Source: Rhodocyclaceae bacterium
Lineage (GTDB): Bacteria > Pseudomonadota > Gammaproteobacteria > Burkholderiales > Rhodocyclaceae
Reading direction: 5' to 3'
NCBI GenBank assembly: GCA_013791905.1
Contig: VMSX01000030.1
Span: 1 to 64,000 of the forward strand
DNA: 64,000 nucleotides
The notes beneath the pieces are model-generated. The model was not told where the DNA came from, made no database searches, and saw only the letters and a list, made by a program, of their open reading frames with translations. Positions 4,891-62,820 of the stretch are shown here, one piece after another. The stretch's first letter is position 1; every line of letters starts with the position of its first letter. A program made the translations under genes and the position numbers.

Positions 4891-4996
4891 AGTGGCCCCC
4901 CACGCTCGCAAACACGCGTGCTCGCTGCCCCCCATGAAATCACCCGAAGCGGTGACGGGGAGGCGTTGCCCTCTTGGGGCGGCCCGGCGAGGGCAA
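4891..4996 (+). repeat. three-hairpin element, copy 1 (sense, SD-embedding)
   Basis: C-rich start just after the etfA stop, a GC-rich middle (GCTCGCAAACACGCGTGC), then the terminal hairpin: arm TTGCCCTC (4966-4973), loop TTGGGGCGGCCCGGC (4974-4988), arm GAGGGCAA (4989-4996). The second arm holds the GAGGG ribosome site and its last base is the A of the next gene's ATG. Confidence 0.8.
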
Positions 4997-5676
4997 TGAA
5001 TTTCCCCGACGGCCTCTTCAGCAATGCCTGGGCCTTCGGGGCGATTCTGCCCTATGCCCTGATATTGCTGTGGGCGGTGCTGAGTGCACCGTGGCGGCGC
5101 TTGCGGGATGGTGGGCAGGTGAATGTCTGGATGGGTGCCATTGTCGTGCTGATGGTGGTCTGGAGCCTCAAGGCCGGGGTGAAGCCGGGCCTTAACCTGC
5201 ACATGCTCGGCGTCACGGCCTTTACGCTGATGTTCGGGCGGCAACTGGCGCTGCTTGGACTGTCGGTGGTGTTGGCGGCCGTGACCTTCAACGCCTCGCT
5301 CAATGGTATCGATGGCTGGCAGCCATTTGCGCTGAACGCACTGGCGCTGGTGGTGTTTCCGGTGTTTCTCACACATGCCATCTTGCGCGGCGTCGAGCGC
5401 TTTCTTCCGGTGCACATCTTTGTCTATATTTTCGTCGCCGCTTTCATCGGCGCGGCCTGCACGGTGGTCGCGACCGGTGCGCTGACGACGTGGCTGCTGT
5501 GGCTTTCCGGCGCCTATGCCGCTGATGTGCTGCTGTATGAGTACCTGCCGTTTTATGCCCTGCTGGGATTTTCAGAAGCCTGGCTCAACGGAGCGGCCAT
5601 CACGCTGATGGTGGTTTATTTCCCGCACTGGGTCGGCAGTTTCGACGACCGGCGCTATCTCTGGCAGAAGAAATAG
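4996..5676 (+). CDS. CbiM-like ECF transporter permease-family protein
   Basis: Integral membrane protein of 226 residues with about six or seven hydrophobic segments. It begins MNFPDGLFSNAWAF and resembles the CbiM/energy-coupling-factor permease family that moves cobalt or nickel ions or vitamins. In the wider family substrate specificity needs an ATPase and a T-component; none is nearby, so this could be a solitary or reassigned member. The ATG at 4996 is preferred over an upstream ATG at 4918, because the extra residues would be translated from the repeat element. The ribosome site lies in the repeat hairpin arm. Confidence 0.7.
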   Translation: MNFPDGLFSNAWAFGAILPYALILLWAVLSAPWRRLRDGGQVNVWMGAIVVLMVVWSLKAGVKPGLNLHMLGVTAFTLMFGRQLALLGLSVVLAAVTFNASLNGIDGWQPFALNALALVVFPVFLTHAILRGVERFLPVHIFVYIFVAAFIGAACTVVATGALTTWLLWLSGAYAADVLLYEYLPFYALLGFSEAWLNGAAITLMVVYFPHWVGSFDDRRYLWQKK

Positions 5677-5728
5677 GGGAAATGTGCCGGCGGCTCAATG
5701 CCACCAGCGACTGGCAGGCGCTCCTGCT

Positions 5729-7936
5729 TTACTTTTCCGGCAAGGTTGGATGCGGTTCCTGGTCGAGGCGCGCGCCTGCCGCACCTTCATTTGCAGCCAC
5801 ATCGATCGAACGGCTGAAGTAACTGTAGCGGTTGCATCCCTGACTCTTCGCCTTGTACATGGCCTGATCGGCGTTCCTGATGAGGGCCTCGGCAATGGTC
5901 GAATCTTCCGGGTACAGGGTGATGCCGATGCTGGCAGACACATGGGCAGGCTCGCCATCCAGCAAGAATGACGAAGACATGCTCTGCAGGATGGCCTGGG
6001 CAATGCGGTCGATACCGCGGGTGTCGTCCAGTTCGGTGAGGATGACGGTGAATTCGTCGCCGCCGAGCCGGGCTACCGTGTCGGATGCGCGCACGCAGCT
6101 TTGCAGGCGTTGCGCCGCCTCGCTGAGCAGCAGGTCGCCCTTGGCGTGTCCGAGCGTGTCATTGACTTCCTTGAAACGATCCAGGTCGACGAACAGCAGC
6201 GCCAGCTGGCGGTCGGTGCGCTGCGCCTTCTTGATTTCCTGTTCCAGACGAGCATGGAACATGCGGCGGTTGGGCAGCCCGGTCAGGGTATCGAAGTTGG
6301 CCTGTTGCCAGATCAGATTTTCAGACTTCTTCTTTTCGGTGATATCCGAGAACAGGGCGACGCGGCGATATGGTTTGCCTTCTGCGTCGAAGGCGGTGTT
6401 GATCACGAGCCACTTGGGATAAATCTCGCCATTCTTGCGCTTGTCCCAGATTTCGCCCTGCCAGTTTCCTGATGCGTTGATCGCGTCCCACATGCCTTGA
6501 AAGAAGGCTTGATCGTGATGCCCCGAATTGAGAATTCTCGGGTTCTTGCCGATGACTTCCTCTTTGGCATAGCCGGTGGTCCGCGTAAAGGCGGGATTGA
6601 TGGCGATAATATTGCCATCGGCATCGGTCACCATCATCGATTCGCTGCTGCTTTCGTACACCATCGAGGCTAGCAGCATTTCTTCCTGGGCGCGTTTTGC
6701 CTCGGTAATGTCGTCGTAGACACCGAGCACGCCAATGACTTGCTGATCCAGGCTGCGCAGTGGAACCTTGGAGGTCCGTAACCAGAGATTTTCACCCTGC
6801 GGCGTGGTTTGCGTTTCTTCGTAGGCTAACTTGTGCTGGCCAGAGGCCATCACCGCAAGGTCGCCGGAACGGTAGTGTGTGGCGTGGTTGCGCCAGGCCA
6901 ACTGAGAGTCCAGCTTGCCAATGACCCCTGCCGTGCCAGCTTCGCCGGCATCCTGGGCAAACAGGGTGTTGCAGCCCAGGTAGCGGGAGTCCCTGTCCTT
7001 CCAGAACATCCGCATGGGGATGGTGTCGATCACCGTTTGCAGCATGTGGTGCGACTCGGCCAATCCTTGCATGGCCTTCCGTCGCTCGTTGTGTCGCCGG
7101 TGATAGGTCAGGGCCACATAGCCGAAAAACAGGCCCAGCAGCGGCAGCGGGTATTTGAGCGCGTCAAAGAGGCCGGGAGCCTTGAATTCGTATTCATTGA
7201 ACCATTTTTCATGCAGGGCCGTGTAGGTGCCGCTGGCCCGGCTCAGCGCCAGGCCTTCGTTCAGCAGGGCCAGCAGTTCGGCGTCGCCCTTTTGAACGGC
7301 GAAGGAGAATTTTTGCGTGGCGCCGGGGGCGATCGGGAGCGCGATGATGGTTAACAGGTTCAACTGCCGCAGGGTCTGCGTGCCCACCAGCTTGCTGACG
7401 AACATGGCATCGTGCCGCCCCGAGGCGAGCAGCCGCAGTCCGTCGGCTGCCGTGGGAACCAGGATCAGCTTGTTGCCCCAGGCCTTGCCGCGCGCGTATT
7501 CATGGGCAATATCCGCCTCGACGACAATGATGGACTTACCCGCCAGGTCATTCTCGCTGCGGATGCCGGTGTGGTCCTTGCGGACAAACAATGCCCCATG
7601 CACCGTGACGTGCGGCACCGAGAAATCGGCGAACTTGCGACGTTCTTCCGATTGCGCGAGGTTGATCAGGATGTCGATTTTGCCTTCCTTGAACTCCTGC
7701 AGAAGCTCATGAAAGGGTTTGACCCGAATGGTGTAGTTCAGCCCCGTTTCACGGGCAACGACTTTCCATAGCTCGACCGTAAAGCCGCCCGCGGTTGCGT
7801 CGGTCAGACCGGTTGCAAAGGGTGGGTAGTCCTGCTCGCTGCCAACAATCAGTCGTTTTGCCGGATTGTGTTCAGCGCAAACAGCCCCGACAACGAGCAA
7901 TGCACATACTGCAATGAGTAAGCGTAGTGGCATCAT
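5729..7936 (-). CDS. periplasmic-binding-domain, double-PAS diguanylate cyclase
   Basis: Membrane sensor (735 residues) expected to make cyclic di-GMP. Order: signal peptide (1-21); an SBP_bac_3-type solute-binding domain (about 30-245, starting [16 protein letters not shown]); one membrane helix (about 255-275); PAS (about 295-410); a second PAS (about 425-540); and a GGDEF domain (about 555-715) with intact GGDEF preceded by RASD, an inhibitory-site RxxD five residues before it. Ligand is probably an amino acid or small acid, by family only. A Fur-box-like site lies 65-85 bp upstream. No partner gene is adjacent. Confidence 0.9.
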
Positions 7937-8000
7937 CGAAGATTGGCTGTGTCAATTCATCCGGTCGGGCACTCTGCTGAAACGAACTGTCAAAACCTAA

Positions 8001-8020
8001 AAAGAGAATCACTCTCATTT
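8001..8020. promoter_or_regulatory. Fur-box-like site upstream of the diguanylate cyclase
   Basis: AAAGAGAATCACTCTCATTT; on the minus strand it reads AATGAGAGTGATTCTCTTT, matching about 15 of 19 positions of the classic Fur box by eye. It is 65-85 bp upstream of the ATG at 7936. No other gene starts nearby in either direction. Confidence 0.5.
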
Positions 8021-8222
8021 GCGGCAGCTTAACAGATGTTGGTTAAGGATTTGTGTTGTCCGACAGGGAATAAATGAAATTTTACCGCTACGCTGCAGTA
8101 ATTCAACAGGCGGACTTCTCTGCTTCTCACTGTTTCGGGAGGCAGTCAGATTCCAGTGCGCGGCCGGTACGTCAAGGCGACATTCCCGGCCGAACCGTAA
8201 TGACCGCCTTGGCGGCAGCGGC

Positions 8223-8621
8223 TCAGTCAGTCTTTTCGGGTTGATTGCGCATGAAGTCGGCCAGATCGCTCAGCTTCTTGTCCAGCGTGGCGCGCAATGT
8301 CGTGTCTGCGACTTGTTCGGCCAGCGCCTGGCGCATGCACAGCATCCATTGGTCGCGTTCTGCGATGCCAATGGCGAAGGGCGCGTGGCGTCCGCGCAGG
8401 CGCGGGTGGCCGAATTTCTCGATGTAGAGCTGCGGCCCGCCGAGCCAGCCGGAGAGAAACATGAACAGCTTTTCCTCGGAACTCGACAGCACGCGCGGAT
8501 GCATCTTGCGCACGCCATAGGCTTCGGGCAGCGTGTCCATCAGTTCGTAAAAGCGCTGGACCAGTGTGCGCACGGCGGTTTCGCCACCGAGTTGCTGGTA
8601 GTGGGTTGCGGGTGTGTTCAT
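8223..8621 (-). CDS. group II truncated hemoglobin
   Basis: Small heme protein (132 residues) of the 2-over-2 globin fold, expected to bind O2, NO or related ligands in the cytoplasm. Typical features in order: QQLGGETAVRTLVQRFYELMD, FLSGWLGGPQLYIEKFGHP, then RLRGRHAPFAIGIAERDQWMLCM; the H of GHPRLRGRH is the expected proximal ligand region. The start at 8621 (MNTPATHYQQ) is chosen because the reading frame upstream of it is the antisense-like shadow of the preceding gene. It lies 22 bp after the ABC-F gene on the same strand, so co-transcription is likely. Confidence 0.9.
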   Translation of the reverse strand: MNTPATHYQQLGGETAVRTLVQRFYELMDTLPEAYGVRKMHPRVLSSSEEKLFMFLSGWLGGPQLYIEKFGHPRLRGRHAPFAIGIAERDQWMLCMRQALAEQVADTTLRATLDKKLSDLADFMRNQPEKTD

Positions 8622-8643
8622 GGGGCTATCAAATGATGCCTGA

Positions 8644-10569: not shown

Positions 10570-10596
10570 GGCGGCATTCTATCGGCGGAACCGCCG

Positions 10597-10617
10597 CCGT
10601 CCCGCCAGCGCCGACTA
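10597..10617 (-). repeat. short A repeat at the higA stop
   Basis: GCCGTCCCGCCAGCGCCGAC then T, ending at the base before the higA stop codon (10618-10620). It occupies most of the 48-bp gap to uup. Confidence 0.85.
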
Positions 10618-10929
10618 TTACGCGACGGTTTGTTCCATGCGCTGAATCCTTGCCAGCGCATCATTGGCAATCCGCTCGGCGACGCGCAGGTCGAAATCGG
10701 CCTGCAAGCCCATCCAGAACTCCGCGCTGGTGCCGAAGTATCGTGCCAGCCGCAGGGCCGTGTCGGCCGTAACGCTGCGCCGCTCGCGGGCGATGTCATT
10801 GATGCGCGGAGCCGGCACGCTGAGGGCAATCGCCAGTGCGTTGGCCGAAAGATGCAGCGGCAGGAGAAATTCCTCGCGCAGAATCTCGCCCGGATGAATC
10901 GGGCGCATGCCGTTACGAATTTCGCTCAT
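10618..10929 (-). CDS. higA: HigA-family antitoxin (first copy)
   Basis: Helix-turn-helix antitoxin (103 residues) opening MRPIHPGEILREEFLLPLHL from residue 8, the usual start of HigA proteins; the HTH spans SANALAIALSVPAPRINDIARERR. Expected to neutralise HigB and repress their shared promoter at 11228-11261. It lies 10 bp after the toxin gene, in the toxin-first order typical of higBA. Only about 65% alike by eye with the second HigA at 33151, so probably acquired separately. Confidence 0.92.
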   Translation of the reverse strand: MSEIRNGMRPIHPGEILREEFLLPLHLSANALAIALSVPAPRINDIARERRSVTADTALRLARYFGTSAEFWMGLQADFDLRVAERIANDALARIQRMEQTVA

Positions 10930-10939
10930 TTCATTCTCC

Positions 10940-11221: not shown

Positions 11222-11227
11222 GCTTGC

Positions 11228-11261
11228 AGTATATAACGGACAACGTTAAACGCCAAACGTT
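11228..11261 (-). promoter_or_regulatory. higBA promoter and candidate operator
   Basis: On the minus strand TTGGCG (11251-11256) and TATACT (11228-11233) are separated by exactly 17 bp, a near-consensus sigma-70 promoter. Two AACGTT palindromes (11242-11247, 11256-11261), inside a repeated ACGTTAAA unit, overlap the -35 and spacer, as expected for HigA autorepression. The transcript start would fall at or next to the ATG. Confidence 0.65.
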
Positions 11262-11264
11262 AAA

Positions 11265-14644
<3,380 letters not shown>

Positions 14645-17356: not shown

Positions 17357-18280
17357 TCAAGTCGGTACGGCAGGGGCCAGCGCCTGTGCGATGGCCTGGT
17401 TCACTGCTAGCGGCGCTTCGGCCATCATGGCATGGCCGACGGCGGGGAGTTCGACGAGGCGTGCGTCTGGCAACTGTTCAAGCAAGCGGCGCGATGCTTT
17501 GACCGAGGTCATGCGGTCACTTTTGCCGGCGATCAGGGTTACCGGGCAGGCGAGCAACGCGATGGCTGCCGGACCGTTTTCGTAGGCATTGCAGGCGGCG
17601 AGATCGTTGTAGAGCACGCCGGGTTTCTGGCGTTCCATGATGCGCAGGTTGATGCCCGGCAGCCACTGGCCGAGGCTGCCATAGGCACCACGCCAGCCGC
17701 GCGGCGAATGCGCCCACTGGTTGATGAGGGCCATGGCGGCGGCTTCGTTCTTCTGCGCGGTTTCGAGCAGCGCGGGGGCGACCGGCATCGGCAGGGCCGT
17801 GCCGATCAGGACCAGGTGGTGGATCAACTCCGGTGCGCGCGCTGCCGCTTCAAGCGCGATAAGCGAGCCCATGCTGTGGCCGATGAGGGTAACGCCTGCG
17901 CCGGCCCGTCCCAAGAAGGTGCGGCCAAAGGATGGAGCGGGCGCAGCCCGCGAACCACCGTCACCCCCTTCCTCGGGAAGGGGGATGGGGGGATGGGGGT
18001 CTGATTGTGCCGTCCCGCCAGCGCCGACTTTTACCAGCAGCGCCAGCAGCCAGTCAGCCAGTGCCTCGATGCTGGCCAGTGGTGTGCCGCCGCTCTGGCC
18101 ATGGCCGGGCAGGTTGACCGCCAGAATGGAATAACCGCGGCCAGCGAAATGGCGGATCTGCTGCATCCAGACGAAATGGTCGTGCTGGGCGCCATGAATG
18201 AACACCAGGCAGGGCAGTGCGGGGTCGAACTCCTGACCGGTTACGGCATAAGCCGGCTGACCGTCAAGCTCGACGAACAT
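17357..18280 (-). CDS. alpha/beta hydrolase carrying a repeat-derived insert
   Basis: Cytoplasmic alpha/beta hydrolase (307 residues). Oxyanion-hole loop FIHGAQHD at 27-34, nucleophile elbow GHSMG at 134-138 (Ser136), acid in AGKSDRMTS near 247, His in VGHAMMAEAP near 278. Residues about 84-128 (KVGAGGTAQSDPHPPIPLPE onward) are translated from a short A repeat fused to a three-hairpin element, replacing the usually short strand before the elbow. The frame stays open. The start overlaps the YdcH stop by one base (TGATG), last gene of the lipid operon. Whether the insert disturbs activity is unknown. Confidence 0.85.
   Translation of the reverse strand: MFVELDGQPAYAVTGQEFDPALPCLVFIHGAQHDHFVWMQQIRHFAGRGYSILAVNLPGHGQSGGTPLASIEALADWLLALLVKVGAGGTAQSDPHPPIPLPEEGGDGGSRAAPAPSFGRTFLGRAGAGVTLIGHSMGSLIALEAAARAPELIHHLVLIGTALPMPVAPALLETAQKNEAAAMALINQWAHSPRGWRGAYGSLGQWLPGINLRIMERQKPGVLYNDLAACNAYENGPAAIALLACPVTLIAGKSDRMTSVKASRRLLEQLPDARLVELPAVGHAMMAEAPLAVNQAIAQALAPAVPT
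17900..18003 (-). repeat. three-hairpin element, copy 2 (inside the hydrolase gene)
   Basis: Same body as the copy at 26940 (GGAGCGGGCGCAGCCCGCGAAC, split here as GGAGCGGGCGCAGC and CCGCGAAC). Loop on the minus strand is TTGGGACGGGCCGGC (17900-17914). This is the only copy whose arms no longer pair well (about 5 of 9). It is co-oriented with the gene and read in frame. Confidence 0.8.
18009..18034 (-). repeat. short A repeat inside the hydrolase gene
   Basis: GCCGTCCCGCCAGCGCCGAC then TTTTAC, read as V-K-V-G-A-G-G-T-A. It abuts the three-hairpin element on its downstream side, making one composite insertion. Confidence 0.88.
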
Positions 18281-26939: not shown

Positions 26940-27047
26940 GTTCCTCCGTAGGGCCGCCCCAAGGAGGAACGGCCAAAACATGGAGCGGGCGCAGCCCGCG
27001 AACAACCGTCACCCCCATCCTTGGGAAGGGGGTTGGGGGGATGGGGG
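26940..27047 (-). repeat. three-hairpin element, copy 3 (nfeD-slipin gap)
   Basis: Fills the gap from the nfeD stop to the slipin ribosome site. Terminal hairpin on the minus strand: GTTCCTCC, loop TTGGGGCGGCCCTAC, GGAGGAAC (arms 26963-26970 and 26940-26947). The second arm is the Shine-Dalgarno 4 nt before ATG. Body nearly identical to the copy at 17900. Confidence 0.88.
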
Positions 27048-28385
27048 TCATGATTTCTCCTTGTTCGTCGAGTTGATCGGTTCCACTTCAAGGGTCAGGC
27101 CGCTTCGCGCCGTGACCCGTACTTTCGATCCGCGCGGCAACGGCACATGACTGCGCACCCGCCATGTTTCGCCATGCACCCTGGCCCAGCCTTCAGCCTC
27201 GATGTCCTCCAGTGCCTCGCCTTCCATCCCCGGCAACTCCTCGCTACCCGTGAGCACCGGACGTTGCCGGGCGCGTAGCGCCATGCCGCCGACCGCGAAA
27301 CTGAACAGGGCGGAAGTGGCCGCCAGCGGCACGATCAATTGCCACGGCACACCATAGCTGGGCAGGTCGGTGTCGATCAGCATCACCGAACCAATGACGA
27401 AGGCGGCGAGGCCGCCCAGCCCCAGCGCGCCGAAGCTGGGCAGGAAAGCCTCGGCCAGCATGAAGGCGATGCCGAGCAGAATGAGCAACAGCCCGACATA
27501 GTTGATGGGCATCATTTGCAGGGCGAACAGGGCGAGCAACAGACAGATGCCGCCGACCACGCCGGGAAACAGCATGCCGGGGTTGGAAAATTCGTAGAAC
27601 AGCCCGTAGATGCCGAGCAGCAGCAGTATGTAGGCGATGCTCGGGTCGCCGATGACGGCCAGCAGGCGATTGCGCCAGTCCGCTTCGACCCGGGTGACCG
27701 TCAGTCCCGCCGTGTCGAGCGTGATCTCGCCGCTTGCCAGTTTCACCTTGCGGCCATGCAGCTGTTTCAGCAGATCCGCCAGATCGACCGCCAGCACATC
27801 CACCACCTTGGCTTTCAAGGCTGCCTCGGCGGACAGGCTGACCGCCTCGCGCACCGCCCGCTCCGCCCAGTCGGCATTGCGCCCACGCAGTTCGGCCAGG
27901 CCGCGGATATAGGCGGATGAATCGTTGATCGCCTTGCTGGCCTTGGCATCGCGCGGCGGCGCGGGTTTGCCTTCTTTCTTGTCGGCCGGCTGGTCCGGGG
28001 CTGCGCTGGGCATCAGTTCCACCGGCGTGGCTGCGCCCAGATTGGTGGCCGGGGCCATCGCGGCGATGTGGCTGGCATACAGGATGTAGGTGCCGGCGCT
28101 GGCCGCACGCGCGCCCTGGGGTGATACGTAGGTGACGACTGGCACGCGGGAGGCGAGAATCGCCTTGATGATGTCGCGCATCGAGCTATCCAGTCCACCC
28201 GGCGTATCCATCTCGATCACCACCAGACTGGCGCGTGCCTCCTCCACCTTGTCGAGGCCGCGCAACAGATAATCGGCACTGGCCGGGCTGATGGCGCCCT
28301 TCACGGTGAGCACGTACGCACCCTCCGCCCACACTGGCAGCGCGTGGAGCAGGGCCAGCAGCAAAAAGACAATCCAGCGTGCCAT
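27048..28385 (-). CDS. nfeD: NfeD protein with ClpP-class serine protease domain
   Basis: 445 residues. Signal peptide 1-20; Clp-type protease domain with EMDTPGGLDSSMRDI, the nucleophile in GARAASAGTY, and a Lys in DAKASKAIND; four or five membrane helices; a soluble NfeD OB-fold at the C-terminus. Relatives cleave stomatin near its C-terminus. Pairs with slipin downstream. Start at 28385 (MARWIVFLLLAL) with GGGGGAT upstream; an earlier in-frame start lacks a signal peptide. The stop TGA begins the repeat element. Confidence 0.92.
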   Translation of the reverse strand: MARWIVFLLLALLHALPVWAEGAYVLTVKGAISPASADYLLRGLDKVEEARASLVVIEMDTPGGLDSSMRDIIKAILASRVPVVTYVSPQGARAASAGTYILYASHIAAMAPATNLGAATPVELMPSAAPDQPADKKEGKPAPPRDAKASKAINDSSAYIRGLAELRGRNADWAERAVREAVSLSAEAALKAKVVDVLAVDLADLLKQLHGRKVKLASGEITLDTAGLTVTRVEADWRNRLLAVIGDPSIAYILLLLGIYGLFYEFSNPGMLFPGVVGGICLLLALFALQMMPINYVGLLLILLGIAFMLAEAFLPSFGALGLGGLAAFVIGSVMLIDTDLPSYGVPWQLIVPLAATSALFSFAVGGMALRARQRPVLTGSEELPGMEGEALEDIEAEGWARVHGETWRVRSHVPLPRGSKVRVTARSGLTLEVEPINSTNKEKS

Positions 28386-35648: not shown

Positions 35649-37466
35649 TCAAGAAACACGCCGGGCCGTCCCAAGTGTTTCTTGGCCCCCTGGGGGGAGA
35701 ACCGAGCGTAGCGAGGTTTGCGGGGGGAGCTCATGACTCCGATATACCTTTCCGTAGGCTTCAATCAGGCGCTGATGCATGGCGCAGCCGAGCAGCGCCT
35801 GGCCGGGTGCGGCAATGGCGAAAAACCGCTGCTCGCCATCGAGCAGGGCTTCCGCCTGCTCGACCACGGCGGCGCCATACAACTGGCGCAGCGTCAGGTC
35901 GCAGGCGGCGGCGCGTTCCGCGTCGTCCAAACGGATCAGGGTATCGACGCAGCGATAGATGCGGCGGCGGTCGGCATTGATTTGCTCGTAGTGCAGGATC
36001 CAGTCGAGCCCTTCACGGATGCTCGATTCGTCACCGCAGGCCAGCGCCAATAGGGTTTTCAGTTCGCCGACGCGCAGGTCTTCCCAGAGCGTGCCGGCAT
36101 CGGCCGCCAGACCGATGAGTGCGCTGACCAGCCGTTGGTCGTCGATGCCGCTGTCGTTGAGGGCATCAATCAGGTCGGCGCAGGCGTCGTCGTCCAGTTC
36201 GGGCAGGCTCAGGATCGCCGCGCGCAGGCGATTGCCCGCGCTACTGTTTTCCCATTCGAGATCATCGACCGGATAGACCTCTGACATGCCCGGCACGATG
36301 ATCCGACAAGCATAGACACCAAGCTGTTCGAAATCGGCGATGTGGATGTCGTGCCCCATGGCATGGATGCTCTCGACCAGCCAGTTGAGGTCGTGGCCGG
36401 TGGCCGCATCCGCCGTGCTGAAGTTCCAGTCGCTGAACGCGAAGTCAGGAGTGTCGCCAAGGAAATTCCAGTGGATGATGCCGCTTGAATCGACGAAGTG
36501 GATTTCGAGATTGGGTGCGCTGGCCACTTCTTCCAGATCGAAACCCGGCTCGGGGAAACCGCCCAGGGCCTCAAGCGCGCGGCCCTGCAGCAGTTCGGTC
36601 AGCGCGCGTTCGAGGGCGACATCGAAGCGCGGATGGGCGCCGAAGCTGGCATAACAGCCCTGGTCGGATGGATTGAGCAGGGTGACGTTGAGTACCGGGA
36701 ATTCGCCGCCCAGCGAGGCATCCTTGACCAGGATGCCAAAGCCGGCGGCTTCGAGTGCCGCGATGCCGGCGGCAATGCGGGGGTAACGGGCAATGACCTG
36801 GTCAGGCACGTCCGGCAGGCACAGGCCTTCGGCGATGACGCGGAACTTGACGTGGCGCTCGAATATTTCCGATAGCGCCTGGGTGCGTGCCTCGGCTGGC
36901 GTGTTGCCGGCTGACATGCCGTTGCTGACATACAGGTTGCCGATGATGTTGACGGGAAACCAGATGGTGGCGTCGTCGCGCTGGCGCACATAGGGCAGGG
37001 CGCAGATGCCGCGTTCAGCATTGCCGGAATTCAGGTCAACCAGTGTTGCGGCGTCGATGCTGCGTTCCGGGTTGTAGAAGTCCTGCAACTCGGGCGACAG
37101 CAGACCGGCGGGCCAACTCCCGTCATCCGGCAGCGCAAACCACTGTTCGCCGGGGTAGTGCACGAAGTCGCGCTGGGCGATTTCCTCGCCCAGATAGTAG
37201 TGCGTCCAGAAATAGTTGCAGGCGAGGCGCTCGAAGAATTCACCGAGCGCGCTGGCCAGCGCCGCCAGCTTCGTAGCGCCCTTGCCGTTGGTGAACAGCA
37301 GTGGACAGTCGCGGTCGCGCACATGCACCGACCAGATGCCATCGACGGGATTTAGCCAGGAGCGTTCCTCGATGTGAAAGCCGAGCTGCGCCAGGCGGTG
37401 CTGCATGGTGGCAATCGAGGTTTCGAGCGAGGCATCCTTGCCCGTGATGAATGTTTCGTGGTGCAT
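35649..37466 (-). CDS. ycaO: YcaO-domain protein (RimO accessory factor type)
   Basis: 605 residues, close in layout to E. coli YcaO, which uses ATP to activate backbone amides and assists RimO in S12 methylthiolation. N-terminal half holds the YcaO fold ([36 protein letters not shown]). The helical C-terminal half is as in E. coli. The last roughly 28 residues ([17 protein letters not shown] onward) are translated from the repeat element, so the original stop was probably lost. Start at 37466 ([15 protein letters not shown]). Confidence 0.88.
35650..35735 (-). repeat. three-hairpin element, copy 4 (ycaO-recQ)
   Basis: Minus strand: CCCCCCGCAAACC, CGCTACGCTCGG, a CCCCCC/GGGGG stem, then hairpin CAAGAAACAC, loop TTGGGACGGCCCGGC, GTGTTTCTTG (10-bp arms: 35650-35659, 35675-35684). 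It overlaps the ycaO 3' end and forms the recQ leader. Confidence 0.85.
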
Positions 37467-39177: not shown

Positions 39178-39324
39178 CCCACCCCCTCCCAGCCTCCCCC
39201 TCGCGGGGGAGGTGACTGTTGACTCGCTGCGCTCGTTTGTTACGGGCGACTCCGTCTTAGCTATTGTGTGGATTGCGGCTTGCGCCGCGTACCGTCTCGC
39301 CTTGGGGCGGCCCGGCGGCGAGAC
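39178..39324 (+). repeat. three-hairpin element, copy 5 (after sseB-like gene)
   Basis: Stem CTCCCCC/GGGGGAG, then TCGCTGCGCTCG, then TGCGGCTTGCGCCGC, then hairpin GTCTCGCC (39294-39301), loop TTGGGGCGGCCCGGC (39302-39316), GGCGAGAC (39317-39324). Plus orientation, as is the gene before it. Confidence 0.88.
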
Positions 39325-39341
39325 TGCTGAGGAGGTGGTTT

Positions 39342-40858: not shown

Positions 40859-41003
40859 GCCTTGCCGCCGGGCCGCCCCAAGGCAAGGCGGCACGCGGCG
40901 CCAGCCGCAATCCGCACCACGGCCAACAACAACGCTCCCCGTAATAGACGAGCGTAGCGAGCAACCGTCACCTCCCCTTGAGGGGAGGCTGGGAGAGGAG
41001 GGC
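40859..41003 (-). repeat. three-hairpin element, copy 6 (rraA-rhlE)
   Basis: Minus strand: CCTCCCC/GGGGAGG stem, GCTCGCTACGCTCG, GCGGCTGGCGCCGC, then hairpin GCCTTGCC, loop TTGGGGCGGCCCGGC, GGCAAGGC (arms 40882-40889 and 40859-40866). Between convergent rhlE and rraA, in rraA orientation. Confidence 0.88.
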
Positions 41004-41486
41004 TACTGAGCTGACGAGGACGCCGTCTTCGTCAGCGTATAGCCATTCGCCCGGACGGAAGGTGACGCCGCCGAAGGTCACCGCAACGTCACTTTCCCCC
41101 TGGCCTTTCTTGGCCGTTTTCTGCGGATGGGTGTCCAGCGCGAGGACGCCGATGTCCATGGTGGCAAGCATCCGCGAATCGCGGATGCAGCCATTGACAA
41201 CGATGCCGCCCCAGCCGTTTTTCAGCGCCAGCGCGGCCAGCTGATCGCCGACCAGGGCACGGCGCAGGCTGCCGCCGCCGTCGATCACCAGTACGCGGCC
41301 GTTGCCCGGGCCTTCCAGCGCCTGGCGGACCAGGCCGTTGTCCTCGAACAGCTTGAGCGTGGCAATCGGGCCATTAAAGGCTTCACGTTCGCCGTAACTT
41401 CCGAACATCGATTCGACTACGCGCAATTGACCATCATTCAGCAGGTCTTCGTGCGCGTCGCAAAGGTCGGCTGTCGATAGTGCCAT
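40968..41486 (-). CDS. rraA: RraA-family protein
   Basis: 172 residues (from ATG 41486, [16 protein letters not shown]). Family: regulator of RNase E or HMG/oxaloacetate aldolase. [15 protein letters not shown] and [15 protein letters not shown] are the conserved site. The final ten residues ([10 protein letters not shown]) are read from the repeat element, so the natural stop was displaced. Last gene of clpS-clpA-rraA. Residues before 41486 lack homology. Confidence 0.88.
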
Positions 41487-44881: not shown

Positions 44882-45028
44882 GCCTTGCCGCCGGGCCGCC
44901 CCAAGGCAAGGCGGCACGCGGCGCCAGCCGCAACCCGCTCACAAGCCTGAACGAGGCACCCCGTAACAGACGAGCGCAGCGAGCCACAGTCACCTCCCCC
45001 GCGAGGGGGAGGCTGGGAGGAGGCGGGC
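44882..45028 (-). repeat. three-hairpin element, copy 7 (after icd)
   Basis: Minus strand, 7 nt after the icd stop: CCTCCCCC/GGGGGAGG, GCTCGCTGCGCTCG, GCGGCTGGCGCCGC, hairpin GCCTTGCC, loop TTGGGGCGGCCCGGC, GGCAAGGC (arms 44905-44912 and 44882-44889). Same arms as copy 6. Confidence 0.88.
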
Positions 45029-45034
45029 CAACAG

Positions 45035-54015: not shown

Positions 54016-54028
54016 CGGCTGAAGAAAA

Positions 54029-54613: not shown

Positions 54614-54642
54614 GTTGTTCTCCTGTTTTTGGGTCAATGATG

Positions 54643-54658: not shown

Positions 54659-54671
54659 ATGGAACCGGGTA

Positions 54672-56051: not shown

Positions 56052-56114
56052 GGGGTTCTTGATGGTGCGTTACAGCAATAAATTGGTCGACCTATGTCTG
56101 GCGCCGATGTTACC

Positions 56115-58366: not shown

Positions 58367-58368
58367 AC

Positions 58369-58517
58369 GCCCGCCCCCTCCCATCCTCCCCCTCACGGGA
58401 GGGGTGACTGTTGACTCACTGTGTTCGTTTATTACGGGGAGCCCCCGCTCAAACCTGTGAGCGGAATGCGGCTGGCGCCGCGTGTCGCCTCGCCTTGGGG
58501 CGGCCCGGCGGCGAGGC
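58369..58517 (+). repeat. three-hairpin element, copy 8 (after Sel1 gene)
   Basis: C-rich CCTCCCCCTC/GGGAGGGG, TGCGGCTGGCGCCGC, hairpin GCCTCGCC (58487-58494), loop TTGGGGCGGCCCGGC, GGCGAGGC (58510-58517). Plus orientation. Confidence 0.88.
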
Positions 58518-58546
58518 TGCTGTGGGGAGCGTTAGCGTGAAATACA

Positions 58547-58690
58547 GCGTTTGCGCCGGGCCGCCCAAGCAAACGCGACACGCGGCGCCAGCCGCAATCC
58601 GCGCCGACCTCGAACCATCGCGCCCCGTGATAGCCGAGCGCAGCGAGCCGTCTAGAACACCCCGCGAGGGGGACGAAGGGGGGGCGGGTG
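58547..58690 (-). repeat. three-hairpin element, copy 9 (after sensor kinase)
   Basis: Minus strand: CCCCCTCGCGGGG, GGCTCGCTGCGCTCG, GCGGCTGGCGCCGC, hairpin GCGTTTGC, loop TTGGGCGGCCCGGC (one G short), GCAAACGC (58569-58576, 58547-58554). Confidence 0.88.
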
Positions 58691-58729
58691 TCTTTCCTGA
58701 TCGGGGGCGCAGCCCGTGCATCATGAAAG

Positions 58730-60043
58730 TTAACTACAGCGCAGCCTGATTTGCGCTGAAAGTCCGCCGCCGTCGCGCGGCAACAATTCCAGCCGGCCAT
58801 GCTGTGCGCGCACGATGCGTTCGACGATGGCCAGGCCCAGCCCGGCGCCGCTGGCACCGGTGCGTGCCGTTTCGCCGCGCGTGAAGGGCAGTTTCAGCCG
58901 CTCGATCTCGCCGGAGGCGATGCCCGGGCCGCGATCCTCGATGGCAATGACGATTTCATTGCCAGCCTGCGTCAGCGTGAGGTCGACCGGTTCTGCCGTG
59001 CCGGCATGGCGCAGGGCGTTTTCGATCAGGTTGATGATGGCGCGGCGCAGCGCCTCGGGGCGTGCTGCAGCCAATTTGGAAAAGTCGGCGCTGGCTGGAC
59101 GGCGCACCCTGTCCCCATAGCGGCCGGCGATGTCATTCAGCAGGGCGTCAAGGTCGGTCGGTTCTGCTGGCGTCCCGGCGCTGTCCTGCGGTCGGGCGAA
59201 GTCGAGGAATTGACCGATGGTGCGATCCATCTCCTCGATGTCGGCAGCCATGCCGGCGCGTGCTTCCGGCTCGGCAACGCTGAGTTCGGTTTCCATGCGC
59301 AGTCGCGTCAGGGGCGTGCGCAGGTCGTGCGAAATGCCGGCCAGCAGCAGGCGGCGGTCATCTTCCAACTGCCGGAGGTTCGCGCTCATCTGGTTGAAGG
59401 CAGCAGTGACGGCCGTGATCTCCTGTGGGCCGTGTTCCGGCAGTGGCGGCGGCGTCTCGCCAGCGCCGACTTTGCGGGCGGCGGTTTCCAGTGCCCGCAA
59501 GGGACGGGTGATGAGAAACACGATCAGCCAGGCACCCGCGAGCGACAGCAGCAGCACCGCCGCGCCCCAGCCCAGCCATTGCAGGGGCAGTTTGCGTTCC
59601 AGCCGCTCGCGCGGCAGGGCCAGCCAGAAATCGCCTTCCGTGCCCTCGAAGATGCGAAAGCTGACGAACAGGCCAGGTTCGCCGTTCAGTTCGAAGGCCA
59701 GGCGGGTGTCAGCCCCGAGCCGTTCCTGCAACAGGGTTGCGATGCGGCGCGGCAGCGGCAGCGGCGGCGGCGGGACAATCTGGTCATTGTCGTCAGCGGG
59801 GTAAACATGCAGTCCTTCGCGGTCGGAAAGCTCCGCCAGCAGATGGTGGCGCAGTTCGGGCTGGGCGGCCAGCAGGGCGACACGTGTCAGGTTGGTCATG
59901 CTGACGACTAGTTGCGTCAGTTGGCGGGCGCGCGGCTCCAGTTCGGCTTCTCGAAAGATGGTCAGCCAGGCGGCAACCGCCAGCAACATCAATGTGGCGA
60001 TCAGCAAAAAGGCGCGCCACAGCAGGCTCTTGGGCAAGAACAC
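58730..60043 (-). CDS. EnvZ-like sensor histidine kinase
   Basis: 437 residues from GTG 60043. First helix about 10-30, periplasmic sensor, second helix about 165-185, HAMP (ITRPLRALETAARKVGAGE), DHp with GISHDLRTPLTR (phospho-His), and an ATPase domain with NLIENAL, DRGPGI, and GASGAGLGL. Two short A repeats are in frame: HAMP (ARKVGAGETPP) and DHp-CA (RRPASADFSKL). Follows the ompR-like regulator; start is not certain. Confidence 0.92.
   Translation of the reverse strand: MFLPKSLLWRAFLLIATLMLLAVAAWLTIFREAELEPRARQLTQLVVSMTNLTRVALLAAQPELRHHLLAELSDREGLHVYPADDNDQIVPPPPLPLPRRIATLLQERLGADTRLAFELNGEPGLFVSFRIFEGTEGDFWLALPRERLERKLPLQWLGWGAAVLLLSLAGAWLIVFLITRPLRALETAARKVGAGETPPPLPEHGPQEITAVTAAFNQMSANLRQLEDDRRLLLAGISHDLRTPLTRLRMETELSVAEPEARAGMAADIEEMDRTIGQFLDFARPQDSAGTPAEPTDLDALLNDIAGRYGDRVRRPASADFSKLAAARPEALRRAIINLIENALRHAGTAEPVDLTLTQAGNEIVIAIEDRGPGIASGEIERLKLPFTRGETARTGASGAGLGLAIVERIVRAQHGRLELLPRDGGGLSAQIRLRCS
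59080..59105 (+). repeat. short A repeat inside the sensor kinase (ATPase side)
   Basis: AAAAGTCGGCGCTGGCTGGA then CGGCG; the gene reads the complement as R-R-P-A-S-A-D-F. Confidence 0.85.
59451..59475 (-). repeat. short A repeat inside the sensor kinase (HAMP)
   Basis: GCGTCTCGCCAGCGCCGAC then TTTGC; read as K-V-G-A-G-E-T in a HAMP loop whose length looks normal for the family. Confidence 0.8.
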
Positions 60044-60054
60044 GATGAGGCTGT

Positions 60055-60798
60055 CTAGATTGCGGAGCTGCCGTCCGGCACAAACACATATCCAAAGCCC
60101 CACACCGTCTGGATGTAGCGTGGCTTGGCCGGGTCGTTCTCGACCAGCTTGCGCAGGCGCGAGATCTGCACGTCGATGGCGCGGTCGAAGACGCCGTGTT
60201 CGCGACCGCGCGCCAGTTCCATCAGCTTGTCGCGTGACAGCGGCTGGCGCGGATGCTTGAGCAGCACTTGCAGCAGGCCGAATTCGCCGGTGGTGAGCAG
60301 GGTGACGGCGCCGTCACGCGTCAGTTCGCGGGTGGCCAGATTGATTTCGACCGGGCCGAAGCGCATCACCTCATGCGTGGCGGCGGGTGCGCCGGCGGGG
60401 GGCGGCGTGGCCCGGCGGCGCAGCACGGCATGGATGCGCGCCACCAGTTCACGCGGGTTGAAGGGTTTGGGCAGGTAGTCGTCGGCGCCGAGTTCCAGGC
60501 CGACGATGCGATCGATATCGTCGCCCTTGGCAGTGAGCATAAGAATGGCGATGTCATTGCCGGTCGGGCGGTTGCCACGCAGGCGTCGGCAGATCGACAG
60601 GCCGTCTTCGCCCGGCAGCATCAGGTCAAGCACGATCAGGTCGTAAAGCTCACGCTCCAACAGCCGATCCATGCCGGCGGCATCGGCGGCCGTTTTGACG
60701 GCGAAGCCCTGCTCGGTGAGATAACGTTCGAGCTGGCTGCGCAAGCGCAGGTCGTCATCGACGACGAGAATCTTGTGTTTGCGGGTTTCGGTATTCAT
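60055..60798 (-). CDS. ompR: OmpR-family response regulator
   Basis: 247 residues. Receiver with VVDDDLRLRSQLERYL, phospho-Asp in LIVLDLMLPGEDG (about 55), Lys in PKPFNPREL; winged helix with GREHGVFDRAIDVQISRLRKLVE and a Tyr-rich end (WGFGYVF). Start ATG 60798, ribosome site GGAGG in a repeat hairpin arm. Partner kinase follows. Upstream is a divergent small secreted protein. Confidence 0.94.
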   Translation of the reverse strand: MNTETRKHKILVVDDDLRLRSQLERYLTEQGFAVKTAADAAGMDRLLERELYDLIVLDLMLPGEDGLSICRRLRGNRPTGNDIAILMLTAKGDDIDRIVGLELGADDYLPKPFNPRELVARIHAVLRRRATPPPAGAPAATHEVMRFGPVEINLATRELTRDGAVTLLTTGEFGLLQVLLKHPRQPLSRDKLMELARGREHGVFDRAIDVQISRLRKLVENDPAKPRYIQTVWGFGYVFVPDGSSAI

Positions 60799-60908
60799 GT
60801 CGCCTCCGCAGGGCCGCCCCAAGGAGGCGACGAATCAACAACACGGAAGCCGCTTTGCGGCTGAACACGTGTAACCCCCGCCCTTGGGGCGGGGGTTAGG
60901 GGGTGGGA
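60799..60908 (-). repeat. three-hairpin element, copy 10 (ompR leader)
   Basis: Minus strand: AACCCCCGCCC/GGGCGGGGGTT stem, AGCCGCAAAGCGGCT stem, hairpin GTCGCCTCC, loop TTGGGGCGGCCCTGC, GGAGGCGAC (60823-60831, 60799-60807). The GGAGG arm abuts the ATG. Confidence 0.88.
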
Positions 60909-61039
60909 TACTCTCATGTAATGCAGGATACCGCCATTTTGCGACAGGACGTTGCGGGATGTTGCTGCAGGTCAGGGTCGCAACGGTTTGTTACAAACCC
61001 TGCCGCAGCCTGCCCGCAGGCGCGGCCTACAATGCAGAC

Positions 61040-61345
61040 ATGAAACCGTCTGTGCGTATTTTCCTTCTGCTCGGTCTGTCCGTCTTCGCTCTTGCAGCAG
61101 AGGCGCAGCCCGCGCCGCCACCGCCGCCCGGCTATTCCGGGCAGGGGAAAGGTTACGGACAAGGGCAGCGCGGGCCGATGCGGGATCTGTCCGATGAGCA
61201 GCGCGAAGAACGCCGTCGGGACAACCGCCAGCGCCGCGAGGTCTGGCAGCAGATGAGTCCGGAAGAGCGCCACCAGTTGCGCCGCGACATTCGCGATGCC
61301 GGGCAGGAGTTGTATCCGCGCGGACGCCATCGGCGCAACGACTGA
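61040..61345 (+). CDS. small secreted Arg/Glu-rich protein
   Basis: 101 residues. Signal peptide 1-23 (FLLLGLSVFALAAEAQ), Pro/Gly segment, then a charged helical part (LSDEQREERRRDNRQRREVW, MSPEERHQLRRDIRDAG) like DUF3106 or Spy-type proteins. Divergent from the ompR-like pair, so maybe its target; inference. Confidence 0.65.
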   Translation: MKPSVRIFLLLGLSVFALAAEAQPAPPPPPGYSGQGKGYGQGQRGPMRDLSDEQREERRRDNRQRREVWQQMSPEERHQLRRDIRDAGQELYPRGRHRRND

Positions 61346-61609
61346 GCGGGCCCGCCATTTGCACAAATGCAATTGCCGACAGTCGGTCAGCCGGCACTAG
61401 TCGATACGCTGGCCGGATAAAATATTAGTTTGTGGCGGGCGGTTTGTCCGATGTCGCGCGAAGCTGGCGGCAGCCAGGCCATCGGAAGCAGAAGTATCCA
61501 GAGACGCATGCAGAGTTCCTTTGATTGGGTGAAAAGTTGCGGGCGAGATCCTACCCAGCTCCTTGGACGGCCTGACGAACTGCCGCATAAAATTGCTAGA
61601 CTGCGTGCC

Positions 61610-62302
61610 GTGAAAATCCTCGCTTTTGAAGCCTCCACCCGCCGTCTGTCGGTTGCCCTTTGGTGCGATGGCGCGCTGCTTGAGCGGTCGGCCGATGTGC
61701 CGCATGGCGGTGCCGAGCGGCTGCTGCCCTGGGCCGGCGAACTCCTCGGCGCGGCCGGCATTTCCCTGGCGCAGCTCGACGGCATTGCCTTCGGCGCCGG
61801 ACCGGGTGGTTTTACCGGGCTGCGCCTGGCCTGTGGTGTTGCCCAGGGACTGGCTTTCGGACTTGATTGTCCCGTGGTTCCCGTCGGTACCCTGGCGGCG
61901 CTGGCACTGGCCAGCGGCGACGGAAAAGTGATCGCCTGTCTCGACGCACGCATGAACGAAGTCTATATCGCTGCTTATCTGGTTGACGGGGATCGGGTCG
62001 AGGAAATCATGGCGCCAATAGTCGGCGCTGGCGAGACGGTGACCTTGCCGGAAGGCGCCGGCTGGCGCGGCGCCGGTGACGGATTTTCTGCCTGTGGCCC
62101 GCTACTGACGGCGCGCCTGGGTACGCGCCTGATTGCCGCGGACACCACGGCCAGTCCCACCGCAGCAGCCGTGGCCCGTTTGGCTGCGCCGCTGCTGGCC
62201 AGTGGTCGGGGCGTTGCCGCCGCCGCTGCCATGCCGCTCTACATTCGCGACAAGGTGGCCTTGACCACGGCCGAGCGCAAGGCGCGGGGCGGGCTGAAAT
62301 GA
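61610..62302 (+). CDS. tsaB: tRNA threonylcarbamoyladenosine protein TsaB
   Basis: 230 residues from GTG 61610 (KILAFEASTRRLSVALW), the normal TsaB start. GAGPGGFTGLRLACGVAQGL is the conserved core. Scaffold of the t6A complex with TsaD and TsaE. A short A repeat is in frame as PIVGAGETVTLPEG. rimI starts within its stop (ATGA). Confidence 0.93.
   Translation: MKILAFEASTRRLSVALWCDGALLERSADVPHGGAERLLPWAGELLGAAGISLAQLDGIAFGAGPGGFTGLRLACGVAQGLAFGLDCPVVPVGTLAALALASGDGKVIACLDARMNEVYIAAYLVDGDRVEEIMAPIVGAGETVTLPEGAGWRGAGDGFSACGPLLTARLGTRLIAADTTASPTAAAVARLAAPLLASGRGVAAAAAMPLYIRDKVALTTAERKARGGLK
62017..62039 (+). repeat. short A repeat inside tsaB
   Basis: AATAGTCGGCGCTGGCGAGA then CGG, read as I-V-G-A-G-E-T. 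Confidence 0.75.
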
Positions 62303-62820
62303 CCCCCCCCCGAAGCCGCAGCTTCGCTGCGTCCTCCCCCCAGGGGGCCAAGCAAAACTTGGGGCGGCCCGGCGTTTTGCTTGAGAAATTTGTGTCGATG
62401 GGCGAAGCGGACCTGCCCGCAGTGACCGCTGCCGAGCAACGCATTCATCGATTCCCGTGGACGCTCGGCAACTTTCACGATTCCCTGCTTGCCGGCCATG
62501 AGGCCTGGCTGCAACGTGAAAGCGGCGAATTGCTCGCCTTTGCAGTGATGATGGGCGCGGTGGATGAGTCGCACTTGCTCAATATCAGTGTGGTGCCGGA
62601 ACGGCAACGGAGCGGATTGGGGCGCGCGCTGCTCGAATTTCTCTGCGACCAGGCGCGGCAGGGCGGCATGGTGCGCATGCTGCTGGAGGTGCGCGCTGCA
62701 AATCAGAACGCCATCGCCTTCTATCAGCACTTCGCTTTTGTCGAGATCGGCCGGCGGCGCGGTTACTATCCCGACTCCACGGGCCGGGAAGACGCCATCG
62801 TAATGTCAAAAAAATTATGA
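62299..62820 (+). CDS. rimI: RimI-type ribosomal-protein alanine N-acetyltransferase
   Basis: 173 residues if translated from the ATGA overlap at 62299; 140 if from ATG 62398. GNAT fold: LLNISVVPERQRSGLGRALLEFLCDQAR (acetyl-CoA loop, QRSGLG), FYQHFAFVEIGRRRGYY. Residues 3-29 of the long form are read from the repeat element, so the true protein likely starts near MGEADLPAVT, or the element was inserted after a native start. Confidence 0.9.
   Translation: MTPPRSRSFAASSPQGAKQNLGRPGVLLEKFVSMGEADLPAVTAAEQRIHRFPWTLGNFHDSLLAGHEAWLQRESGELLAFAVMMGAVDESHLLNISVVPERQRSGLGRALLEFLCDQARQGGMVRMLLEVRAANQNAIAFYQHFAFVEIGRRRGYYPDSTGREDAIVMSKKL
62303..62383 (+). repeat. three-hairpin element, copy 11 (tsaB-rimI)
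   Basis: C9 run, AAGCCGCAGCTTCGCTGCG, CCCCCC/GGGGG, hairpin CAAGCAAAAC (62349-62358), loop TTGGGGCGGCCCGGC, GTTTTGCTTG (62374-62383). It begins at the tsaB stop. Confidence 0.88.

What the first reader, a model, noticed from the sequence alone, without database searches (positions are those of the whole stretch)
4891..62383. Three-hairpin repeat with invariant loop and locus-specific complementary arms
Eleven copies (4891, 17900, 26940, 35650, 39178, 40859, 44882, 58369, 58547, 60799, 62303) share a C-rich first stem, a GC-rich second stem, and a last hairpin whose loop reads TTGGGGCGGCCCGGC or differs by one to three bases. The arms around that loop are TTGCCCTC, GTTCCTCC, CAAGAAACAC, GTCTCGCC, GCCTTGCC (twice), GCCTCGCC, GCGTTTGC, GTCGCCTCC and CAAGCAAAAC: nine different sequences in ten copies, each perfectly complementary to its own partner. 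Such covariation means the fold, not the arm sequence, is kept, or that insertion creates an inverted copy of its target flank. I know no named family with this design.
Basis: seen in the sequence. Interest (0 to 1): 0.92.

Follow-up and report, generated by a model that had tools for sequence, protein, structure and literature searches.

The report
Mobile hairpin repeats with swapping stems
These are copies of a small mobile DNA repeat, probably one named in 2011 but never explained, whose hairpin keeps a nearly unchanging tip while both sides of its stem change together.

Summary
Ten of the eleven listed copies are clear (covariance-model E <= 9.2e-9); 17900 scores only 0.99. The own genome holds 175 exact and 234 up-to-one-mismatch copies of the 15-base core.

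Copies picked by the exact core alone pair at stem positions 2-8 far above shuffles; in other species all four Watson-Crick pair types occur at each position. Pairing falls to near background at position 9. The "loop" folds as a helix cap in RNA: UUGGG-GCGG-CCCGG plus a bulged C.

Empty sites in sister genomes show insertions. In 34 copies tested, neither arm stands exactly at the empty junction in any. So both arms travel with the element and the "inverted copy of the target" idea fails.

One of four body types fits BRE, the Beta-proteobacterial repeat element of Hot et al. 2011 (PMC3110155), in size, G+C, tandem spacing and hosts. The sequences themselves could not be compared.

No Y1/RAYT gene found carries a copy beside it, and some hosts show no Y1. 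The mobilising enzyme is unknown. Verdict: new variants, with structure and insertion evidence, of a known, unexplained mobile repeat.

The parts
4893..4998 (+). class B copy; terminal hairpin 4964-4998, arms CGTTGCCCTC / GAGGGCAATG
   Evidence: E 6.6e-13
17892..18005 (-). degenerate class D copy; core with 2 mismatches, arms do not pair
   Evidence: E 0.99
26940..27050 (-). class D copy just 5' of a start codon; hairpin 26940-26970, arms GTTCCTCC / GGAGGAAC; empty in G008 and G010, occupied in G015
35650..35730 (-). class C copy; hairpin 35650-35684, arms CAAGAAACAC / GTGTTTCTTG; empty in G008, G010, G015, G005, G012
39178..39326 (+). class A copy; hairpin 39294-39324, arms GTCTCGCC / GGCGAGAC
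40859..41005 (-). class A copy; hairpin 40859-40889, arms GCCTTGCC / GGCAAGGC; empty in G008
44882..45032 (-). class A copy; hairpin 44882-44912; G008 holds a copy at the same place with arms GTCTCGCC (two paired changes)
58369..58517 (+). class A copy; hairpin 58487-58517, arms GCCTCGCC / GGCGAGGC
58547..58700 (-). class A copy facing the previous one; hairpin 58547-58576 with a one-base deletion in the core, arms GCGTTTGC / GCAAACGC
60799..60910 (-). class D copy at a start codon; hairpin 60799-60831, arms GTCGCCTCC / GGAGGCGAC; occupied in G015 too, empty in G008, G009, G010 and five more distant genomes; ATGA at both ends
62303..62383 (+). class C copy after a TGA stop; hairpin 62349-62383, arms CAAGCAAAAC / GTTTTGCTTG; empty in the ten relatives aligned

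Best explanation
The copies are a non-autonomous mobile repeat that is recognised, and so kept, as a folded strand. SHOWN: (1) a terminal hairpin of fixed geometry: a stem of about 8-10 bp of free sequence, then a nearly unvarying cap. (2) The two stem arms change together and both travel with the element. (3) Copies sit in places that are empty in sister genomes, by eye mostly at gene junctions and start or stop codons, and once in frame inside uvrA. (4) Copies lie mostly on the sense strand of the left-hand neighbour. (5) Copies at one place in two genomes can differ by 2-3 paired stem changes. INFERRED: an enzyme or RNA-binding factor made elsewhere in the genome grips the cap by its sequence and the stem only by its shape. 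Stem changes that break pairing are weeded out among copies that move or serve, while paired changes drift freely and spread between copies by recombination. The sense-strand bias and the conserved U-G wobbles, which would be A-C mismatches on the other strand, point to the transcribed RNA strand as the form recognised. Class B is most likely BRE; classes A, C and D are further body types carrying the same 3' hairpin.
For: Covariation in 64 own-genome and 128 other copies chosen by the exact core alone: Watson-Crick at stem positions 2-8 in 55-63 of 64 and 89-102 of 128, shuffle means 23-32 and 33-51. In 42 distinct rows 95.9% of cells pair, 37-49% when slid; covariation score 0.578 against 0.131 shuffled, 0 of 500 shuffles reach it. 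Cap: among 60 cores within 4 mismatches that have arms of 6 bp or more in 492 kb of the own genome, 50 are exact, 7 have one mismatch, 2 two and 1 four; reversed-core control 0 (stretches chosen for dense cores). U-G wobbles kept in 41 and 40 of 42 rows (the model was built on exact cores). Empty sites for 44 of 108 genus copies. Arms absent from empty junctions in 34 of 34. Exact cores 175, 185, 103 and 78 in four genomes of the genus, 0-14 in the other fifteen. Left neighbour sense in 43 of 58 called (p 3.1e-4) in the own genome and 26 of 30 (p 5.9e-5) in Rhodoferax lacus, right neighbour unbiased. Paired-only changes in 3 of 18 orthologous comparisons. Arms differ strongly between Rhodoferax copies with near-identical bodies.
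Against: No mobilising enzyme was found. No element with an internal gene was seen, but none was systematically sought. End points and target duplications are not clean: some copies show ATGA/ATGAA, AGGAT or GTGA at both ends, others nothing clear. In 8 of 18 orthologous comparisons the arms show one-sided changes only and in 3 a mixture, so pairing is not always restored; and at 44882 the body differs too, so gene conversion or reinsertion explains the paired changes as well as step-by-step compensation. Two of the measures do not beat shuffles (pairs with a change on both sides 8 against 7.0, 31 of 500 shuffles; further pair types 26 against 23.9, 95 of 500). Whole elements fold only modestly better than shuffles (z -1.45 to -2.93). 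Copies with ungapped arms of 0-4 bp are 8 of 64 and 61 of 128; part of the latter are chance cores in unrelated phyla or stems with an offset. Selection for host function cannot be separated from selection for mobility.
Confidence: 0.6

Rival explanations
1. A regulatory or stabilising RNA of the host: the element works in mRNA 3' ends or as small RNAs and is kept by selection on the host; mobility is incidental.
For: Sense-strand bias relative to the left neighbour; conserved U-G wobbles and bulge; BRE overlaps the transcripts bprJ1 and bprJ2 in B. pertussis (paper's own words).
Against: Exact-core number swings from 0 to 185 within one genus, and sites empty in relatives include gene starts and one coding sequence. 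No gene is known to me to need a copy.
Confidence: 0.22
2. A self-correcting stem: one arm is rewritten from the other by template switching in the hairpin during replication or transposition, so pairing is kept without selection and arms vary at no cost.
For: Perfect pairing across very many different arms among copies with near-identical bodies; arms differing by 2-3 pairs at one locus between genomes.
Against: One-sided changes only in 8 of 18 orthologous comparisons, and a wobble intermediate exists (L266), as ordinary compensation would give. No direct evidence of templated rewriting.
Confidence: 0.1
3. Insertion creates an inverted copy of the target flank.
For: A few class B copies with arms GTCGGC sit in or beside native GCCGACTT-like sequence (copies 73 and 95; copy 107).
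Against: 0 of 34 copies have either arm exactly at the empty junction; one-mismatch finds are 5 and 3 of 34 against 2.0 and 2.0 expected. The same arms recur at different places of one genome (GTCTCGCC 12, GCCTTGCC 10 of 64 distinct copies).
Confidence: 0.03
4. A REP/REPIN moved by a RAYT (Y1) transposase.
For: A RAYT-like gene is in G000 (NCBIfam NF047646, 64.5 bits, below its cut-off of 80) and Y1 hits are in G008. Hairpin with a bulge.
Against: No GTAG tag within 8 nt of the foot in 63 + 44 + 12 hairpins. No copy in the 3.3 kb stretches around nine Y1 loci of other betaproteobacteria. No Y1 match at E 0.001 in 4 of 12 host genomes, one of them with 23 exact cores.
Confidence: 0.08
5. Ordinary intrinsic transcription terminators.
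For: GC-rich hairpin, often downstream of genes.
Against: TTTT within 12 nt 3' of the hairpin in only 6 of 63, 6 of 44 and 1 of 12; nearly unvarying cap sequence.
Confidence: 0.03

Closest known systems
BRE, Beta-proteobacterial repeat element (Hot et al. 2011, PMC3110155; section 14 read in full, other passages seen)
   Same: Class B: tandem spacing 75-77 and mean G+C 70.1% in Bordetella genomosp. 4 (BRE in Bordetella: 75-91 bp, mean 69.0%). BRE is said to be mostly intergenic, sometimes overlapping gene ends or inside genes, and in the same host families (Alcaligenaceae, Comamonadaceae, Rhodocyclaceae).
   Different: Section 14 says nothing of a hairpin, covarying arms, body classes A, C, D or empty sites; 'hairpin' is found 0 times in the main text and 'stem-loop' once, in a passage I did not see. 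It reports at most 29 copies in a genome and all in chromosomes; I also found plasmid matches. Its sequence (figure, additional file) could not be compared.
GTAG and CGTC REPs / REPINs with RAYTs (PMC3733652 abstract and passages; PMC2817692 passages; PMC6006769 passages; PMC8266576 abstract)
   Same: Small structured repeats in high copy, mostly downstream of genes; E. coli REPs have a bulge.
   Different: No GTAG tag and one CGTC in 119 hairpins; longer element; sequence kept in the cap, not the foot; no adjacent RAYT found.
Bor-1 stem-loop family of Bordetella (PMC2267715, passages)
   Same: Intergenic, structured, 93-117 nt models in B. pertussis and B. bronchiseptica.
   Different: Sequence not seen; may or may not be the same repeat.
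Rolling-circle origins of circoviruses and geminiviruses (recalled, no call)
   Same: Fixed sequence at the tip of a hairpin whose stem varies but pairs.
   Different: No replication protein or nick site known here; an analogy only.

Membership tests
BRE | unit of 75-91 bp in Bordetella (about 90 bp full length) | tested here: met
   class B in Bordetella genomosp. 4: 73-75 nt as I cut it (first G/C to arm end), tandem period 75-77; Rhodoferax lacus 76-82; G000 74-110, mean 90. The cut units lie at or just under the published minimum, the period within it. Class A is longer (about 150 nt).
BRE | tandem copies with no or few bases between | tested here: met
   spacings 82-86 (Rhodoferax) and 75-77 (Bordetella)
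BRE | G+C 63.7-78.9%, mean 69.0% in Bordetella | tested here: met
   10 class B units in Bordetella genomosp. 4: 64.0-75.3%, mean 70.1%; in Rhodoferax 67.5-84.4%, mean 77.4%, for which no published value was seen
BRE | in Alcaligenaceae, Comamonadaceae and Rhodocyclaceae | tested here: met
   Bordetella, Achromobacter, Rhodoferax, Polaromonas, Variovorax, Acidovorax and Rhodocyclaceae records (one search was capped)
BRE | sequence match to the published alignment | not testable with these tools
   the alignment is in a figure and in additional file 1; figures are not held and look-ups in supplementary files were capped at 0
BRE | next to lexA in the B. pertussis group (locus 3) | not tested
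   counts and places only were taken for the genus of G070
REP / RAYT | GTAG (or CGTC) tag at the foot | tested here: not met
   GTAG 0 of 63, 44 and 12; CGTC 1, 0 and 0
REP / RAYT | RAYT gene flanked by copies | tested here: not met
   no copy in the 3.3 kb stretches around nine Y1 loci; nearest copy about 6 kb from Y1 in G000, 1.35 kb in one of three G008 loci, none in or about 8.8 kb away in the other two
Intrinsic terminator | T run after the hairpin | tested here: not met
   13 of 119 hairpins
Rfam families | match over the gathering score | tested here: not met
   no match in the window; in six loci the only match is an RNase P RNA, not the repeat

The most novel reading that the evidence does not exclude
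A mobile element whose copying machinery rewrites one arm of its end hairpin from the other at each move (hairpin-templated synthesis), so the stem is free to change while a fixed cap is recognised, with several different bodies sharing that 3' end as SINEs share a LINE tail. This would be a new transposition mode with an enzyme still to be found, widespread in Betaproteobacteria.
Probability: 0.12. Interest if true: 0.8.

Novelty: new variant of a known kind. Interest (0 to 1): 0.5.

Why it matters
It gives a structure, a mode of change and evidence of insertion to a repeat that, as far as my searches show, was named once and left unexplained. The nearly unvarying cap with a bulged C and two U-G pairs, against an almost free stem, predicts a specific binding protein or enzyme that can be fished out. 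It may also explain some odd in-frame peptides and gene-start extensions in these genomes. If the stem is self-correcting, it would be a new way for a mobile element to evolve.

Tried and rejected
Target-copy model: rejected by empty junctions; the few GTCGGC copies near GCCGACTT remain a loose end.
RAYT: no adjacency, no match in some hosts. Association with copy number in the genus is weak and confounded by incomplete genomes: Y1 matches in G000, G003, G008, G010 and G012, none in G009 and G015 (85% and 83% complete).
Reverse transcriptase (PF00078): matches in G000, G008, G015 but none in G009 with 78 cores, and matches in G003 and G011 with no exact core.
Intrinsic terminator: no T run.
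Rfam: nothing for the repeat.
Phages: no match. Plasmids: 8 records of betaproteobacteria, 32 kb to 3.5 Mb. IMG/VR: exact cores in 120 contigs, capped list, not studied.
Target duplications: looked for by eye; ATGA/ATGAA clear in a few, no rule for all.
Literature: the core is in one unrelated paper; the first-stem strings are in 22 papers, of which the 20 listed look unrelated by title; searches led to BRE (PMC3110155), Bor-1 and REP/RAYT papers. No claim is made beyond those searches of open-licence papers.
Limits of my counts: class labels come from simple patterns and some are wrong (copy 54 is class C sorted as A; copies 88 and 98 are class D sorted as '?'). The 44 copies with empty sites are not all independent (tandem or facing pairs; one insertion seen in two genomes). 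The Rhodoferax body blocks and core were part of the selection pattern.
Full report
OBSERVATION. I read all eleven places. Ten carry a hairpin with perfectly paired arms of 8-10 bp around TTGGGGCGGCCCGGC or a near variant; nine arm sequences differ. The eleventh (17900) is degenerate. A covariance model of the 31-base hairpin finds the ten at E 5.7e-14 to 9.2e-9 and 17900 at 0.99. That model was built from 29 hairpins chosen for paired arms. The whole genome (3.64 Mb) has 175 exact and 234 up-to-one-mismatch cores; the reversed control has none. In stretches of relatives poor in the core the model finds 1 hairpin in 179 kb, against 65 in 428 kb of own-genome stretches picked for dense cores.

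ANATOMY. The shared part is only the 3' hairpin. Upstream bodies fall into four types, sorted by simple patterns. By eye, types A and D look alike in their first part, and B and C are alike in layout (C run, small hairpin, second C run closing on a G run). Folded as RNA, the core is not an open loop: UUGGG pairs with CCCGG over a GCGG tip, and one C is bulged before the variable stem. Folded as DNA or on the other strand, the cap is weaker. Whole elements fold only modestly better than shuffles (z -1.45 to -2.93 for five copies). The two U-G wobbles are kept in 41 and 40 of 42 distinct own-genome rows (model built on exact cores). Among 60 cores within four mismatches that have arms of 6 bp or more, 50 are exact, 7 have one mismatch, 2 two, 0 three and 1 four; the reversed core gives none (stretches chosen for dense cores).

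COVARIATION. Choosing copies by the exact core alone, stem positions 2-8 pair by Watson-Crick in 55-63 of 64 distinct own-genome copies (shuffle means 23-32, maxima 35-43). In other species it is 89-102 of 128 (means 33-51, maxima 48-64). At position 9 pairing falls to 15 of 64 (mean 10.6, maximum 16) and 43 of 128 (mean 33.5, maximum 48). All four Watson-Crick pair types occur at each of positions 2-8 in the 128. There are 94 distinct 8-base arms among the 128. The 128 include chance matches: contigs of Streptomyces, Hymenobacter, Planctomycetes and others hold the 15-mer, and 28 of 119 contigs have no stem of 5 bp or more around the core, some of them true copies with an offset. A second test on 42 distinct rows gives 95.9% of cells paired, 37-49% when slid, and covariation 0.578 against 0.131 shuffled, which 0 of 500 shuffles reach. 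Two further measures there do not stand out: pairs with a change on both sides 8 against 7.0 (31 of 500) and further pair types 26 against 23.9 (95 of 500). That alignment is fitted to the model, so it leans towards the structure; one search does not.

RATE OF CHANGE. In 39 class B copies of Rhodoferax lacus the 5' arm differs by 0.34-0.61 per site in pairwise comparison except the last pair (0.05). The blocks CCCCCACG, CTGCCCCC, the G run and the core differ by 0.00-0.10, but these blocks were part of the pattern used to pick the copies, so their constancy is partly built in. Copies with at most two body differences differ at zero to six of eight arm positions.

MOBILITY. Same-genus genomes (G008 at about 90%, G009, G010, G015 at about 85%) have empty sites for 44 of 108 copies examined, not all independent (raw junctions). 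The 60799 place is occupied in G015 and empty in G008, G009 and G010. By eye most insertion points are at stop or start codons and gene junctions. One copy in G008 lies in frame inside uvrA and reads open through the gene. Short repeats of the target (ATGA, ATGAA, AGGAT, GTGA) flank some copies; for others I could not define the ends. Exact-core number in the genus is 175, 185, 103 and 78 in four genomes and 0-14 in fifteen.

ARMS ARE CARRIED. Of 34 copies with an empty site at 85% or more mean flank identity, none has either arm exactly at the empty junction (0.2 and 0.1 expected by chance; at such identities a native 8-mer should survive exactly in a good share of cases). With one mismatch, 5 have the 3' arm (2.0 expected) and 3 the 5' arm (2.0 expected). 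The same arms recur in many distinct copies (GTCTCGCC 12, GCCTTGCC 10 of 64). Class B copies with GTCGGC are an exception: they sit in or beside native GCCGACTT-like sequence, the end of another repeat.

ORTHOLOGOUS COPIES. Eighteen comparisons between genomes at the same place, over eight stem pairs: 4 identical, 8 with one-sided changes only, 3 with paired changes only (2, 2 and 3 pairs; all class A, one of them 44882) and 3 mixed. At 44882 the body also differs from its middle on, so exchange between copies is as likely as step-by-step compensation.

STRAND. With neighbours called by a simple codon-position G+C rule on 420-base flanks, the left neighbour is sense in 43 of 58 called (62 copies) in the own genome and 26 of 30 called (33 copies) in Rhodoferax lacus. 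The right neighbour is unbiased (27 of 56 and 13 of 30). Copies with arms under 5 bp or near locus ends were dropped. A cruder rule gave the same direction. No T run follows: TTTT in 6 of 63, 6 of 44 and 1 of 12.

ENZYME. Y1 transposases were found in 18 of 41 genomes, the own included, and in 8 of 12 other hosts, 7 over the cut-off. Four hosts have no match, and one of these, Bordetella genomosp. 4 (G070), has 23 exact cores. None of the nine Y1 loci from those hosts carries a copy in its 3.3 kb stretch. The nearest copy is about 6 kb from Y1 in G000 and 1.35 kb in one G008 locus. The G000 protein scores 64.5 bits against the REP_Tyr_transpos model, below its cut-off of 80. Reverse transcriptase is found in 7 of 19 genus genomes and not in G009. 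The mobiliser remains unknown.

KNOWN FAMILY. Hot et al. 2011 (PMC3110155; section 14 read in full, passages) name BRE: 75-91 bp, mean G+C 69.0% in Bordetella, tandem, mostly intergenic, in Bordetella, Polaromonas (29 copies), Delftia, Acidovorax, Rhodoferax and Azoarcus, overlapping the transcripts bprJ1 and bprJ2. They suspect mobility from uneven distribution and variable tandem number. Class B in Bordetella genomosp. 4 has cut units of 73-75 nt, spacings 75-77 and mean G+C 70.1%; in Rhodoferax lacus 76-82 nt, spacings 82-86 and mean G+C 77.4%. I hold class B = BRE at about 0.9. The sequences are only in a figure and an additional file. The section and passages I saw hold no hairpin, no covariation and no classes A, C or D.

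JUDGEMENT. The finding is real and biologically interesting. It is most likely not an unnamed class: it is BRE plus new body variants, with a structural and evolutionary description that I did not find in print in the searches listed. The leading explanation is a structure-recognised, trans-mobilised repeat acting on the sense strand; the enzyme and the exact ends are open.

Noticed in passing
window 8883, 10596, 11791, 14371, 18009, 21113, 34056, 39344, 44745, 52748, 59081, 59451, 62018: A second repeat, GCCGTCCCGCCAGCGCCGACTTT, 13 copies in the window with up to 3 mismatches (0 expected), 88 in 492 kb of the own genome and 46 in 179 kb of relatives poor in the hairpin; it can lie in coding sequence and some class B copies sit at its end.
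   Followed up: partly
L192 loop at 547 (G008): A class B copy in frame inside uvrA, adding about 32 residues without a stop.
   Followed up: yes
L027, L051, L065, L103, L123 (Comamonadaceae and other betaproteobacterial records): Copies whose 3' arm seems to hold a start codon on the other strand, giving what look like N-terminal extensions or short upstream reading frames (by eye).
   Followed up: no
L285, L083, L251: Tandem arrays of class B at 81-85 bp spacing, five cores in a row in the L285 region; the L285 copies shown have the same arms.
   Followed up: no
Rhodoferax lacus copies, first hairpin: A base after CCCCCACG goes with a base before CTG as G/C, C/G or T/T in most copies (by eye): possibly a further contact.
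   Followed up: no
G000:C1:5391-6020: A reverse transcriptase in a 614-aa open frame in the own genome, not studied.
   Followed up: no
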